Assembly: GCA_025890175.1 (NCBI GenBank)
Contig: JANPYM010000011.1
Coordinates: forward strand, 147,669 to 211,668
Direction: 5' to 3'
Origin: Ciborinia camelliae
Taxonomy: Eukaryota; Ascomycota; Leotiomycetes; Helotiales; Sclerotiniaceae
Length of the DNA: 64,000 nucleotides
Below the pieces are notes generated by a model, which saw only the letters and a program-made list of their open reading frames with translations, was not told where the DNA came from and ran no database searches. Positions 18,104 through 34,703 of the stretch are shown piece after piece; the first letter of the stretch is position 1; each line of letters opens with the position of its first letter. A program made the translations under genes and the position numbers.

Positions 18104-21100
18104 TCAACATAACTCTTCCTCCTCTCCACTCGTTAACCTCTCCAGCATCCCTCGACTCCAAACCGCATGCGGATGTCCTTCTCCCAAAACCCTACTTTGC
18201 AACTCCAGCGCCCGTTGATGCCACAATATCGCTTTCTTCCTTCCTTCCACACTCCCAATAAGTGCTCCCATATCCTCCCATAAACTCCCTATATCATTCA
18301 TCGTCCACAGGGTATCCGGATTATCCTTTCCAAGCACTCTAACTCTCCTTTCATACATATCCTCCATGATTTCCAACGCTTCTTTGTATTTACCCTGCGC
18401 TTTCAAAACTTTGGCGATGTCTGATCTTGTGCGGATAGTGTGGGGATGATCTTCGCCCATTATAGTCATTTGGCCTTTTAGCGCAAGTTGGTGAAGGTTG
18501 AGTGCTTCGGGGTAGCGATCTTGGAATCGGTAGCAGCGGGCAAGAGTGTTGAGGGTCCAAATTATCTGCAGATCGGTTTCTGGAAGTGATTTTCGCAGGA
18601 TGTAGAGAGCGCGGAGATGGTATTGTTCTGATTCCGAGTATTTCTTAAGATGTCGCGTTTCTCGGCCCAGCTCATTCAAAGTCAATGCTAGATCGAGATG
18701 ATCAGGTGGAAGATACTTTTCTTGAATTGACAGAGCTTTCATTTGGGTCGTTAATGCCTTCTCCGTCAGGTTCTTCTGATCGTACATTATCCCGAGGCTA
18801 TTTAGGAGCCAAGTTGTGCGGACAGATTGTGGTGATGAAGCTCCTTGGGGACTCTGTGATAGAGCTTTTTCGAACATATCAATGGCTTGATCCACCTTTC
18901 CTGCCATTGTGAAAGCTCTTGCCAAATCCCGGACAATTAAGTCACGTTCAAAATTCGATATAGACTCTGCCTGGCCTAAATCTAATTGATCCAATTCAAT
19001 CAACGCCCGCTGTATATCAGCCAGATCCTCCGCTGCAAAGGTGGTTGTTGATCCTTCTTTGTGATGCTTCCAATCACTGACCTGTTTCTGATATTTTGCT
19101 ATTCGCTGTAGGGGAAATGATTGCCTATTTGAAATAAGAAAACGGAGAATCCATGTTGACCTTGCTAGCGGTGAAGCTACAAAACTGGCGTGTTTTTGAG
19201 ATAATTGTTCGTCAAATGATGCTGAAGATAGATGATGGCACCAGTTCTCGGTAGAATATTTCACCAGTGGGTATTGAAGATGATCAACACTGGTGCTATG
19301 AATAACAGCTGGTAGAGAGAGACTAGCTAGGGTCACCTCGCTAATAGTTTGATTTGCATGGGACTCAGTCATCAGGAACTGAGTTGCCTTCGCGGACATT
19401 GAGTCAAAATCATGAGACTTCCATAGGAATTCCCGAACCGATAGATGGACCGGGTGGAATGTATCCTTCTCTGCTCGGTATTCAATCAACGGGGCACCCA
19501 GATCGATTACAGCATCTTTGAAAGGACGTTGATCTTCCAAGAATTCTTTCTTGTTATCATCCCAGGATAAAGCACACTGGAGCTCTTTCCATGACAGTGG
19601 TCGTGTGGTGCAACAGACCCAGAGAAGTATTTCGCGAGCAAGATTTCGTCGTCGAATACTTTGCGAGCCTAATCTTTCTAGTATCTGGCCATAAACACCA
19701 TTGAGTCCCTCCGGAATCTTATCAACAGCCTCCACAATACTCTGGGAGTCAATGGCTTCAGCTAAACTTTGGACTCCCAAAGAAGCATATAGAAACATTC
19801 CACCGGAAGCATTTGACAATTTAGAAAATGCTTGATCCTGTGCTCCTGTTCCTTTGCCAGGTAAATGATGTAATGACTTGGTTAGAAATTTGTCGATGTC
19901 TGGTTGTACCAAAGTAGGTTCTAGCTCAATAGTTGTGTGTGGGACCTCTGCAAGCTCATTTATAATAGTGGGAAGGTTTCGAGAAAATAGAGCTAATCGA
20001 ATATTCGAGGTGCTTCCTGCTATATTGCCAAATGACTTTGTGAGGTCAGCAGGGTCGCTGCATTCATCTATTCCATCGAGAATGATGTAAGATAATGGAA
20101 CATCCACCCCGACATGTTTGATGATCGAGAGAATGTCATCCGCTCTAGATATATGCTGTCTCCCATACTTCCTGGCTCGATAATAGGCTTCATAAACCTC
20201 GATGGGGAAATCTTGCATCGGCATAATCAGTTGTGCCAAAATTGAGCCTAAGATATTCAATGTCTCTCTTTTTCGACTATCTCCGGAATCGCAATAAAAA
20301 TAAGCGACTAGATTCTTTTCCTTCTTTTCTGATTCCTGTTGAAGATACTCGATGGTAACAGAACTTAGCACAGTCTTGCCCGATCCCGGTCGGCCATGAA
20401 TCCACAATGTCGAATAGTCCTCGGAAGATTTGGAGCAGTCTTTCCAACTCTTGAATCTTGAGTCATCTTGTAGCCACACTCCAGTCCCTGGCGAGCGTCT
20501 ATTGAGAGATCGATAATAGTCCTCTTTGGGGTCAACTTGAGTTAACCATTTCAATATTGAATCTTTGATGTCTATTTGTACCCGTCAGTTTCAGGAATAT
20601 AAAGAAATTTTCCCTCGTAGAGTCGTTGAACTTAATAAAAATATCATGTGACTTACCATATGCATCTCGACTATCTATTCGATTCATCATACCAGCATTA
20701 TCCAAAGCAATGGTTCCAACTAATTCTTGAATCTGTTTGGTTGAGGCATCCATCCGAGCTCGATGTGCCAGAGTAATCTCGTCATTGAAAACTCGGGTAT
20801 ATCTTTCAATGTGCTCCAAATTATCTTTGAACTCGGTATCGAAAGATTTCTTGACATTTTTAAGAAATATTTTAAATGCTGTCACATTGTCAGAGTCAAA
20901 CGAGGACATATGGGGATTTAACTAACAGCTTGTAGAAACCGCTTTCCTAATCTTCTCCAGAAAAAGATAAATCTCGTCATATAAATCCGACAACGCAGTT
21001 CTCACACGCAATTCTGTCGCAAACATCTTTTCATACTGGCTAGATATCGAAAGAATATCACTGAGCTTCAACATCGCATTATCGATGTAATAAAAATAGG

Positions 21101-21800
21101 TGGCGGAGGTCTGAGCAACCATCAAAACAGCTTTTAACGAACCCCATACCAAAGAAGCACTACTCGTCCCCTGAACCATCATATCTACTACCGGAGAAAA
21201 TCTCGTTAGGAAATCTATAACTGGTTCAATTGTCTTCCCAACTTTGCGGTATCGTGATGAGGCAAAATGGTGGCGTTCAAGTGCTCGTACTTCTCTCCAT
21301 ACATCGTCAATATTTATTGGTGTTTGGGCTGCTACCGTGTATGAACTAGAGGTTTCTATTTCTGTTGCCAGGCTGGGAGTACCAAATGATGGCGGTTTGA
21401 TCTTGAAGTCTTCTGGCCACTGGGCATTCGGATAGTCAGCTGACCTGTAAGACGGGACTCGGTCTGGAATGTCCATTTTTTTGGCCGGATGCTTCCCAAA
21501 ATGAGACATAGTTGGGAGATTGAGAGTAAGATTGGGTTTGAAAATTAGTGTGGTAATCTTTCCAAATACCAGGTCATATCTCTTCTTTATTAAAACTTCA
21601 CCGAGTTCCTCGGGACACCATGAATCATGCACTGCCATCGTTTTCATTCCCGAAGGCGGACTTTTCGGGCGAAGCAGTGAGACAAAAGACTGGACAATGT
21701 TACACTGTGGCACGAGGCTGTATGCAAGGAATCCCAATTCAGACACAGCCCCGAAAAGGCATATCAGCTCGACTATTTTCGCCACATTGAGCCTCTGCAT
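18104..21800 (-). CDS. NLR/STAND protein: N-terminal fungal domain, NACHT, TPR repeats
   Basis: Three exons on the minus strand (21800-20927, 20878-20657 and 20571-18104; introns of 48 and 85 bp with CTGAC branch sites) give 1187 residues. Fungal NLR proteins are signal-sensing switches for allorecognition, immunity and programmed cell death. About residues 160-290 hold a helical N-terminal domain of the type seen before NACHT in fungi (DUF7708/Goodbye-like is my best guess), with motif SASLVWGSLKAVLMVAQ. NACHT: Walker A GRPGSGKT at about 425-432 (Lys431) and Walker B YIILDGIDEC at about 527-536. The last 260 residues (about 915-1175) are TPR repeats of the kinesin-light-chain-like type (for example LALTLNELGRETRHLKKYSE). 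An alternative start, MSHFGKHPAKK at 21509, would give 1090 residues. It is divergent from the hydrolase gene, 123 bp away. Confidence 0.9.
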
Positions 21801-31926: not shown

Positions 31927-33313
31927 ATGCCTTCCTCCTCAGAATTAGAAGAAAAAAAAGGTCGATGGGTATGGATCTGCTGCCGCTGCGAAAACCGCCA
32001 TAGGAAATACCCATTCCCGGCACATGTCAGGTCTTGTGCAGTTTGTAATCACGCACGATGCAGAGATTGTCCATTCACGCATTTGAAACAAGGCCACTGT
32101 CAAGGCAAACTCATTACGACTGCGGAGTCCCAATTTGAAAACTTATCAGCGGATGATCTCCGTGATAACCATTTTACTTATGACTACGATCATTATTACG
32201 GTATTGAGTCTGCACCAGAAGATGTGTACCAGGCCCACGATTCACAACTCATGTATTTGCCTGCAGATGACTCTAAGTATGTGCTTGGAACTGCCTGTAC
32301 TTTCGTTCATACTGACACTTTTGGCAGAATAACGTCAGCAACCAATTATTTCCGAAACCTAGAAAAAATTGCAGAGATTGTGGAAAAAGGAAGGTATGTC
32401 GGAGGTATTCCGATCAAGGTTGCAATTCTTGATACAGGAATACATCCTTCGCACCCGGTCTTTCAATCAATCCGCGAATATAAGAATTTTATCAACCCCT
32501 CTTCTGGACCTGAAGACTATGAGTCTACGCGTCATGGTTCCAGTATGGTTTATTTGCTCCACAAAGTAGCACCTTCTGTTGAGATATATTTTGCTCGTGT
32601 ATTCGGCAATGGACCTATAAAATCGGATTCTGCTATCCCTGTTGCCAATGTATGTCTCCACTTCCATGACTCTGTAAGCACCGAACTAATATGGCCACTG
32701 AAAGGCATTGATTCATGCTAGAGATGTGTGGAAAGTGGACATCATTTCTATGTCATTTGGATTCAAGGATGAGAAAAAAGAATTTCTCAAGGCCATTAAT
32801 GATACCTTACATACCTTGATATTTGCATCTGCCTCAAATTATGGTGCAAACGAGAATCCTCCAATTCGATTCCCGGCGCGAGTGAAAGATCGAGTAATTT
32901 GCCTCAATTCGGCAGATGGTAATGGAAGTCCCTCGGATTGCAACCCTCCTGCCAACGATAAACGGGAAAACTTCACTGCTCTAGGAGAGGGTGTGCGGTT
33001 GAGCGAAGAGGTCATTCAACCGGCTAGAGGGACTAATAGTAATTGTGTCATGGGATCATCAATAGCAACGGTAATTACAGCGGGAATAGCAGCACTTGTA
33101 CTCGAGTTTGCAAGACAAGAAGATTATGTCCCAATCCGGTGTTTAGAATCTATCAAGACCCACTCTGGCATGTCTGCTGTTTTACGCGCCATGACTAAGG
33201 GTGGCGAGAAAGGCGGTTTCAACTTCATAGCTCCTGGGAAAGTTTTCCTAAACTGCAATTCATCAGTTACACGCGAGCGTATATCTAAGGCTCTGGAGGA
33301 AAGAAATCATTGA
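31927..33313 (+). CDS. Subtilisin-like S8 peptidase with N-terminal Cys/His-rich segment
   Basis: Two exons, 31927-32649 and 32705-33313 (55-bp intron, donor GTATGT, branch ACTAAT, acceptor AAAG), encode 443 residues. The full subtilase triad is present: Asp169 in AILDTGIHPSHP, His203 in STRHGSSM and Ser360 in VMGSSIATVITAGIAAL, with oxyanion Asn286 in SASNYG. There is no signal peptide or I9 propeptide. Instead residues about 15-60 hold a Cys/His-rich pattern (CCRC...CAVC...CRDC...H...H.C) like a small zinc-binding module common in leotiomycete proteins. So the enzyme is probably cytosolic and not a digestive secreted protease. It reads towards the gasdermin-like gene 537 bp downstream, the arrangement known for het-Q2/het-Q1. 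A short 5' exon upstream of 31927 cannot be excluded. Confidence 0.85.
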
Positions 33314-33850
33314 CGACCTAGACATTTGGTTATGTTCATTAGTCATCAAAATCGTATCTCATGTAGGTTTGATGCAATATATACTTACTAGTTCTACGAT
33401 CCTTCACTGTCAAAATTCCTGCAAAAGGTCTCAATAAGAGCGTCAGAAAACCAATATCCCGAGTGTAGCTCGGAAATAGGACCTTGTGCTACTTATACCA
33501 CAATTTATGGATGCTGAACGTCGTAGAAAGTCTCCGAGAAGTCCAATCAGTGCTTTTCTCAATACCGATTGACCTTTATTAATGTACAGGAACTTTTATG
33601 TAGGCTACAAGCCTACCTGCATGCTTTTAAATTATTCATAGACTCATCATATGCAGTGTTCTGAAATGTCACCAACCATTAAAGAAAACGTTTCCGAAGA
33701 AAATTACACAGCTTTTAAGATGAAAACAGCGCTTTTTGAGTGATTGTGGCGTCAATCATACTTACTCTCGATTATATCACAATCATTCCTCGTTCATTCG
33801 AATTACAAGTATTCTCAAGTCATTTCAATTTTCTATCATCATTCCCCACA

Positions 33851-34703
33851 ATGACAGAAAAATCCTGGTTTCCCCTTCGCTACAAACATTTCTCATCCAA
33901 TGGACCAATCCAACTGGGTCAAATAAATCATAGAGAACCCCAAAGAACCTCACCAACCTATCGACTTCAGCGGCCCAACTCCCTTCCCATCTAGCATGCC
34001 AATCCACTCTGCCATGGAAAAACATTTTTCGCGAAGTATTTCCGGGACGATGGAGGGGGATGCGTCACTTTCTTCTAAGATTGATGCATTCCCTATTGGC
34101 GCATCTATGCGGGCTGAGTTTGAGAAAGTTATATACAACCATGCCGAATTTGAAACGCTAGAGACGAAAATCATCATCCCTACGACTGAATACATCGTCG
34201 GAAGTATGGCACGACCAAATATCAAGAAATATCTGGGCAATGGTGTATTCCGCAAAAAGATTTACATGATCACTGGGCTGAAAATCGCACGCAAAGGAAA
34301 GGTATCGAGTGGGAATAATAGTGGTGGAGGAGGAGGATCGCAGCTTGGCATTCAACCGACACCTATGATACCTCGGTTATTGGGGCTCGATGTCAAATAT
34401 AAAAGAGGGGTTGATGAAGAATCGAGTTCGAGCGCAACAGATTTTATCTGGGCATTTAATTTGAGACGAATTTATTATCGCAGAGGATTGCTCGTGAAGA
34501 GTGATATCTTTGCCGATGGTGCAACGTTTACAATGAGGGAAGGGAGACCACAGGATGAGTATGAGCAGGGACCGCTTGCCAATGACACTGAAATTACTGT
34601 GCAGGGTATGGATGAGAATGACTTCCATGGAGACTCGGACAAGGTCAATCAGGTTGTGAATCTTGGAAATGGAGAGACGTTGATTATTTTGGAAAAGATG
34701 TAA
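33851..34703 (+). pseudogene. Fungal gasdermin-like (RCD-1/HET-Q1-type) gene with a 5' frameshift
   Basis: Fungal gasdermin-like proteins are cytosolic and oligomerise into membrane pores after proteolytic release, killing the cell. The main open frame, 33996-34703 (235 codons), shows the family look: alternating beta-strand-like segments including MITGLKIARKG and FIWAFNLRRIYYRRG, a Gly-rich GGGGGS loop, and an acidic C-terminal tail. A second frame begins at ATG 33851 with the N-terminal pattern expected of the family (WFPLRYKHFSSNGPIQLG), but it is thrown out of frame at 33921-33928. There AAAT occurs twice in tandem, a net 4-bp insertion, and that frame ends at a stop near 33995. No intron large enough to bridge it is seen. 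So the allele is broken, or starts at the internal ATG 33996 and lacks about 48 N-terminal codons, or contains a sequencing error. Identification rests on pattern recognition plus the neighbouring S8 peptidase. Confidence 0.62.
33921..33928 (+). repeat. AAAT tandem duplication at the frame break
   Basis: Two adjacent copies of AAAT. The net 4-bp gain accounts exactly for the +1 frame difference between the 33851 and 33996 frames. It looks like replication slippage or a small duplication footprint. Confidence 0.7.

What the first reader, a model, noticed from the sequence alone, without database searches (positions are those of the whole stretch)
31927..34703. Subtilase-gasdermin gene pair: a het-Q2/het-Q1-like cell-death module
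An S8 peptidase with intact triad (Asp169, His203, Ser360), no signal peptide and a Cys/His-rich N-terminus lies 537 bp upstream, same strand, of a gene with the pattern of fungal gasdermin-like proteins. In Podospora the linked het-Q2 subtilase cuts the het-Q1 gasdermin-like protein to trigger incompatibility cell death, and such pairs recur in fungal genomes. The zinc-ribbon-like N-terminus replacing an NLR or propeptide on the protease would be an unusual architecture and could be the sensing part.
Basis: partly seen in the sequence, partly recalled or inferred. Interest (0 to 1): 0.93.

Follow-up and report, generated by a model that had tools for sequence, protein, structure and literature searches.

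The report
Fungal protease–gasdermin cell-death gene pair
This is a fungal gene pair, a cutting enzyme next to a pore-forming protein that it probably switches on to kill the cell; the arrangement is already known from many fungi, and in this genome the front end of the pore-former's gene looks broken or misread.

Summary
The finding is real and of a known kind. The window is from Ciborinia camelliae (proteins NHQ30_008422/008423). The upstream gene is an S8 subtilase without a signal-peptide-like N-terminus: 426 aa in my three-exon model, Pfam E 2.8e-15, triad D152/H186/S343 plus N269. The downstream gene matches the fungal gasdermin RCD-1-1 (E 1.1e-7 as annotated, 4.8e-12 with a profile). 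In Sclerotinia borealis both relatives are listed on contigs of 18,196 bases. A second, decayed pair lies on contig C1, a weak remnant of a third on C5. A review puts ~80% of fungal gasdermin genes beside protease genes, ~63% beside S8.

Structure prediction failed.

The parts
31927..33313 (+). S8 subtilase gene (Q2L-type protease), exons 31927-32276, 32328-32649, 32705-33313; 426 aa; D152 (codon at 32431), H186 (32533), N269 (32837), S343 (33059). One search used an intron-1 junction one base further 3'; the product and these positions are the same.
   Evidence: (Pfam PF00082 E 2.8e-15); public model NHQ30_008422 = P0005
31961..32104 (+). Cys/His-rich N-terminal segment (WVWICCRC ... CAVCNHARCRDC), zinc-ribbon-like; in frame, stop-free, 144 nt; spliced out as an intron in the public model P0005
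   Evidence: (C12 E 3.9e-4, C22 E 2.1e-3); codon usage of 31963-32106 does not support coding
32277..32327 (+). intron 1 of the S8 gene (GTATGT ... TACTGAC ... CAG)
   Evidence: sequence; residues absent from P0005, P0006, P0007
32650..32704 (+). intron 2 of the S8 gene
   Evidence: same junction in P0005
33996..34703 (+). gasdermin-like ORF, 235 aa; RCD-1-matching part residues 34-160 (34095-34475); 57 residues follow the GATF at 175-178
   Evidence: public model NHQ30_008423 = P0001
33927..33995 (+). in-frame stretch upstream of the annotated gasdermin ATG; the RCD-1 match extends 11-13 residues into it; preceded by an in-frame TAA (33924-33926)
   Evidence: (35.2 to 38.8 bits for RCD-1-1; 21.1 to 27.2 for RCD-1-2)
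33851..33925 (+). possible 5' coding piece of the gasdermin, in a different frame from the rest (suggestive only)
   Evidence: 154 of 2000 shuffles score as well against the C1 copy; no PDB match

Best explanation
A two-gene regulated-cell-death module of Ciborinia camelliae: a cytosolic S8 protease (HET-Q2-like, 'Q2L') encoded just upstream of its substrate, a fungal gasdermin. Most likely the protease, once activated (possibly through its zinc-ribbon-like N-terminus), cuts the gasdermin in the linker behind the conserved core and frees the pore-forming domain from a short C-terminal tail; the pores then kill the cell. Shown by sequence: the two families, their adjacency, the intact triad, and recurrence of the pair. 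Inferred: cytosolic location, cleavage, activation, pore formation, cell death, and the sensing role of the N-terminus. In this assembly I could not bring the gasdermin's 5' end into one open frame, so this allele may be inactive or mis-sequenced, or its first exon was missed.
For: RCD-1 chains are the only credible PDB matches of the downstream product (profile: all 4 sequences listed at E <= 1 are RCD-1); relative P0004 alone gives RCD-1-1 at E 4.4e-9. S8 Pfam hit over its cut-off with D/H/N/S present. S8 relatives include proteins with TPR domains (P0009, P0028) and, by Pfam numbers whose names I recall, ankyrin (P0037) and patatin (P0010), the multidomain style reported for Q2L proteases. 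S. borealis: gasdermin relative P0002 and S8 relative P0006 both listed with a contig of 18,196 bases. Same genome: 2 of 2 gasdermin matches at E <= 0.001 (the tool's counts are lower bounds) have an S8 match within about 2 kb; a rough estimate puts the chance of one such neighbourhood at 9e-4. Review: ~80% of fGSDM genes cluster with proteases, ~63% with S8; HET-Q2 (388 aa) removes 40 residues from HET-Q1 (278 aa).
Against: AlphaFold2 with 4 sequences gave mean pLDDT 32.3, so there is no structural confirmation. Pfam Gasdermin PF04598 did not hit the product or the genome. The 5' gasdermin frame is interrupted. In S. borealis the catalytic Asp reads Gly. Botrytis paeoniae (P0003) and JGI P0004 have no S8 hit listed on a contig of equal length, and Monilinia fructicola (P0007) and JGI P0008 have no gasdermin hit. 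Cleavage was not tested.
Confidence: 0.77

Rival explanations
1. A decaying module: the gasdermin is a pseudogene in this strain and the protease is drifting or kept for another purpose.
For: In-frame stop at 33924-33926, 12 codons before the RCD-1-1 match begins; 0 splice models with a canonical donor and acceptor bypass it. The C1 pair is decayed: a TAG inside the gasdermin match; in the S8 a stop and an insertion with 102-nt inverted arms, 95% complementary. The C5 S8 has stops, with only a weak gasdermin-like remnant beside it. S. borealis S8 lacks the Asp.
Against: The S8 here is open over 426 codons and keeps its catalytic residues; the gasdermin ORF is open to its end and 59, 53 and 42% identical to three relatives. 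An assembly error or a first exon I missed would explain the stop as well.
Confidence: 0.4
2. Half of an allorecognition (heterokaryon incompatibility) system of het-Q type: strains with an active protease and no working gasdermin kill fusion cells with strains that keep the gasdermin.
For: An intact protease beside a doubtful gasdermin fits the published pseudogenization model for het-Q1/het-Q2.
Against: One strain only; no population data; a sequencing error is not excluded; nothing shows that the protease is constitutively active.
Confidence: 0.12
3. The two genes are unrelated neighbours; the S8 is an ordinary intracellular subtilase.
For: Three of the six S8-related loci found in this genome (C16, C17, C24) showed no gasdermin-like stretch in the 9.9 kb fetched around each.
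Against: Pairing repeats in S. borealis and at C1 and fits a published genome-wide trend.
Confidence: 0.06
4. The Cys-rich N-terminus is an intron and not protein, as in the public model P0005.
For: P0005 splices 31961-32104 out; relatives P0006-P0008 show no such segment in their models; a protein search restricted to this region scored no match (3 candidates); its codon usage scores below 99.9% of 2164 open stretches (confounded by Cys/His/Trp content).
Against: It matches Cys-rich segments at C12 and C22 (E 3.9e-4 and 2.1e-3), beyond its Cys pattern (0 and 2 of 5000 shuffles with Cys held in place); the donor GTCGAT is atypical; its 48 codons are stop-free and a multiple of three.
Confidence: 0.25

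Closest known systems
HET-Q2 / HET-Q1 of Podospora anserina
   Same: S8 protease of similar size (388 aa; here 426) and a gasdermin with a short C-terminal tail (figures from passages of PMC10989679)
   Different: het-Q1 and het-Q2 are idiomorphs, one or the other per strain; here both lie side by side; Cys/His-rich N-terminus here (its absence from HET-Q2 was not checked); 5' gasdermin frame doubtful; no direct sequence comparison with HET-Q1/HET-Q2 was made
Q2L-fGSDM two-gene clusters of fungi (Clave et al. 2022, known to me through reviews)
   Same: gasdermin gene within 10 kb of an S8 protease gene
   Different: The architectures named in the passages I read (TPR, ANK, WD40, NLR, kinase-like) do not include a zinc ribbon; the full list of 18 was not seen
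RCD-1-1/RCD-1-2 of Neurospora crassa (PDB 8jyz)
   Same: Gasdermin, best PDB match
   Different: RCD-1 works by co-existence of two allelic variants, not by cleavage
Bacterial gasdermin-protease systems
   Same: Protease and gasdermin genes clustered
   Different: Bacterial, antiphage; not compared by sequence here

Membership tests
Q2L-fGSDM two-gene cluster | Gasdermin N-domain homology of one product | tested here: met
   RCD-1-1 E 1.1e-7, 8.7e-9 extended, profile 4.8e-12; Pfam Gasdermin no hit; fold not confirmed
Q2L-fGSDM two-gene cluster | Protease gene within 10 kb | tested here: met
   S8 ends 682 bp before the gasdermin ATG; PF00082 E 2.8e-15
Q2L-fGSDM two-gene cluster | Catalytic residues of the S8 protease | tested here: met
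   D152, H186, N269, S343
Q2L-fGSDM two-gene cluster | Pair kept in related genomes | tested here: inconclusive
   S. borealis yes, by equal contig length; P0003, P0004 (gasdermin) and P0007, P0008 (S8) show no partner in the lists
Q2L-fGSDM two-gene cluster | Complete gasdermin reading frame (bears on activity; not defining) | tested here: inconclusive
   In-frame stop 12 codons before the RCD-1-1 match; no canonical splice model bypasses it, 8 loose GT-AG models do; sequencing error not excluded
Q2L-fGSDM two-gene cluster | Proteolytic removal of a short C-terminal tail, then cell death | not testable with these tools
   57 residues follow GATF; no assay
het-Q1/het-Q2 allorecognition system | The two genes are idiomorphs at one locus | tested here: not met
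   Both genes in one haplotype
het-Q1/het-Q2 allorecognition system | Incompatibility between strains | not testable with these tools
   No other isolate held
rcd-1 allelic system | Two divergent alleles that co-activate | not testable with these tools
   One strain only
Zinc ribbon / treble-clef domains | Paired Cys/His knuckles that bind zinc in a known fold | tested here: inconclusive
   C18 C19 C21, C37 C40, H42, C45 C48; no Pfam match; no structure

The most novel reading that the evidence does not exclude
The strain carries a natural het-Q2-like haplotype in the making: a zinc-ribbon-gated S8 protease that is intact beside a freshly broken gasdermin, so that fusion with strains keeping the gasdermin would trigger death. 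It would be an incompatibility system caught while arising by pseudogenization, with a protease architecture not among those named in the review passages I read.
Probability: 0.1. Interest if true: 0.72.

Novelty: new member of a known kind. Interest (0 to 1): 0.42.

Why it matters
It adds a pyroptosis-like protease-gasdermin module from a Sclerotiniaceae fungus, questions two public gene models (the protease's missing Cys-rich segment; the gasdermin's tiny first exon), and shows decay of a sister pair within one genome. If the zinc-ribbon segment is real protein, it is a small candidate sensor for the open question of what activates these proteases. If the gasdermin break is real, the locus tests the pseudogenization model of incompatibility.

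Tried and rejected
Pfam Gasdermin PF04598: no match in the products or the genome. Protein search restricted to the Cys-rich region: 3 candidates, none at E <= 10; the word-based method could miss diverged zinc ribbons. Codon usage trained on 11 window ORFs, two of which overlap in different frames (4700 codons with pseudocounts), did not separate coding from non-coding on short pieces and scored the Cys-rich segment very low; reported as evidence against. The two gasdermin 5' pieces, each alone against the C1 copy, were not significant (154 and 1534 of 2000 shuffles), and neither the window's 33851-33925 piece nor the C1 piece found RCD-1. The C1 gasdermin ORF alone did not find RCD-1. The C5 remnant is weak: HMM E 0.2; shuffles reaching the score 30, 49, 2 and 31 of 3000 against P0001-P0004, 1361 of 3000 against the C1 copy.

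Splice models for the gasdermin's 5' end (introns of 45-400 nt, single intron): none with a canonical donor and pyrimidine acceptor; 15 with any GT-AG, 8 of them with at least 10 upstream codons, none using the 33887-33922 piece. Models with more introns were not tried.

Rejected: ordinary secreted subtilase (no signal-peptide-like stretch); chance neighbours (see rivals). That the zinc-ribbon architecture is not in print is not claimed: I saw only search listings and the passages; the primary paper (PMC8851545) was not held.

Full report
Where it is. A protein search with the 33996-34703 product returned NHQ30_008423 of Ciborinia camelliae (100% identity), and one with the protease returned NHQ30_008422. 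The window is G000:C3:147669-211668 of a 46.2-Mb, 27-contig assembly.

The protease. The 17 residues it would add are absent from the public model P0005 and from the relatives P0006 (Sclerotinia borealis) and P0007 (Monilinia fructicola). With the second intron (32650-32704) the product is 426 aa. Pfam Peptidase_S8 scores E 2.8e-15. D152, H186, N269 and S343 are the triad and, by recalled subtilisin numbering, the oxyanion Asn. H186, N269 and S343 are invariant in the eight rows aligned; D152 is Asp in seven and Gly in P0006, the S. borealis relative. The best-scoring solved structures are subtilisins BPN' (done with P0005). There is no hydrophobic N-terminus.

The Cys/His-rich N-terminus. The public model splices 31961-32104 out as an intron with an atypical donor. 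I think it is protein, at about 75%. It matches two other Cys-rich segments in the genome (C12 E 3.9e-4, C22 E 2.1e-3). None of 5000 full shuffles reaches either score, and with the cysteines held in place 0 (C12) and 2 (C22) of 5000 do. Against it: the annotated relatives have no such segment, a protein search restricted to this region found nothing, and its codon usage is unlike that of the window's other genes, a test confounded by its amino-acid make-up. It has no Pfam match. That it is a metal-binding sensor is inference.

The gasdermin. phmmer against 177,635 PDB sequences gives RCD-1-1 of Neurospora crassa at E 1.1e-7; the only non-RCD-1 entry listed is an antibody at E 0.48. A profile of four relatives gives 4.8e-12, and the four sequences listed at E <= 1 are all RCD-1. 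The columns conserved in the four relatives include EFETL, MITGL and D-x-x-WAF. After GATF (residue 178) 57 residues follow: an acidic linker and a GM-x-x-x-DF motif in three of four rows, GL-x-x-x-DF in the fourth. By analogy with HET-Q1, cut at F238 with loss of 40 residues, the linker is where a cut would be expected; this is inference. AlphaFold2 failed (mean pLDDT 32.3), so the fold is not confirmed structurally.

A doubtful front end. When the query is extended upstream of the annotated ATG in the same frame, the RCD-1-1 match rises from 35.2 to 38.8 bits and RCD-1-2 from 21.1 to 27.2, and the aligned part grows by 11-13 residues upstream of that ATG. This is a modest gain, but it suggests that the gene reaches further 5' than the ORF. 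In that frame a TAA lies at 33924-33926, 12 codons before the RCD-1-1 match begins, and the first 50 residues of the RCD-1-1 chain have no counterpart. The piece just upstream (33851-33925), in a different frame, resembles the corresponding piece of the C1 copy (FSSNGPIQLGQI against FPPNGLIVLGSI), but not significantly by itself (154 of 2000 shuffles). A scan of single-intron splice models found none with a canonical donor and acceptor that bypasses the stop, and 8 loose GT-AG models, none of which uses that piece. The public model P0001 begins MHGPTPFPSS, which needs a very small first exon (my reading). So the allele is 5'-broken, or the assembly has an error here, or a first exon was missed.

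Recurrence. In S. borealis the gasdermin relative P0002 and the S8 relative P0006 are both listed with a contig of 18,196 bases, hence very likely the same contig. In this genome the search with the gasdermin found two places, C3 and C1 (the same two with P0004 at E <= 1), and an independent search with the protease found six loci, among them C3 and C1. At C1 the genes are convergent and decayed: the gasdermin match holds a TAG, and the S8 has a stop and an insertion with 102-nt inverted arms. At C5 a decayed S8 faces a 98-aa ORF with ATDFVSAFRLRKI, a possible gasdermin remnant (weak). No gasdermin-like stretch was found around the S8 loci of C16, C17 and C24 (9.9 kb each).

Comparison with what is known. 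From passages of PMC12881547 and PMC10989679, and from passages and section 15 of PMC10197012: about 80% of fungal gasdermin genes cluster with protease genes, about 63% with S8; the proteases are called Q2L and show 18 annotated architectures, often with TPR, ANK or WD40 repeats; HET-Q2 cleaves HET-Q1; and incompatibility systems may arise when a component of such a pathway is lost or becomes constitutively active. I did not see the primary paper. The pair here meets the testable features of a Q2L-fGSDM cluster. It is not a het-Q system in the strict sense, since het-Q1 and het-Q2 are idiomorphs and here both genes sit together.

Verdict. It is a new member of a known kind, with three points of added interest: the zinc-ribbon-like N-terminus, the doubtful gasdermin front end, and the decay of a sister pair. 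The most novel reading, an incompatibility locus arising by loss of the gasdermin, is possible but rests on one assembly.

Noticed in passing
window 18104-21800 (-): A fungal STAND/NLR-like gene: an 816-aa ORF with NPHP3_N, GPIID_WHD and TPR repeats (NACHT just below its cut-off), preceded by an ORF matching DUF7708 and, below cut-off, the Goodbye domain; a third ORF lies between them (not scanned). It is about 10 kb from the protease-gasdermin pair.
   Followed up: partly
L010:4150-6674 (G000:C1): Second, convergent and decayed gasdermin-S8 pair; within the S8 an insertion with 102-nt inverted arms, 95% complementary, like a small transposable element.
   Followed up: partly
L011:4028-5455 (G000:C5): Decayed S8 facing an ORF that looks like a gasdermin C-terminal remnant, beside a long run of the peptide repeat LR(I/T)YE(S/P)TN.
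   Followed up: partly
L012:4297-6088 (-) (G000:C16): S8 gene with a long N-terminal extension and no gasdermin-like stretch found in the 9.9 kb fetched.
   Followed up: no
L017:1036-1677 (G000:C22) and L016:1486-1686 (-) (G000:C12): Cys-rich W-x-[WF]... CC-x-C ... CxxCxHxRCxxC segments, 77% identical to each other; no Pfam zinc family over its cut-off in the C22 ORF, which ends shortly after the segment.
   Followed up: partly
P0006 (Sclerotinia borealis F-4128): The S8 relative apparently linked to the gasdermin relative has Gly in place of the catalytic Asp and is named a lipid acyl hydrolase.
   Followed up: no
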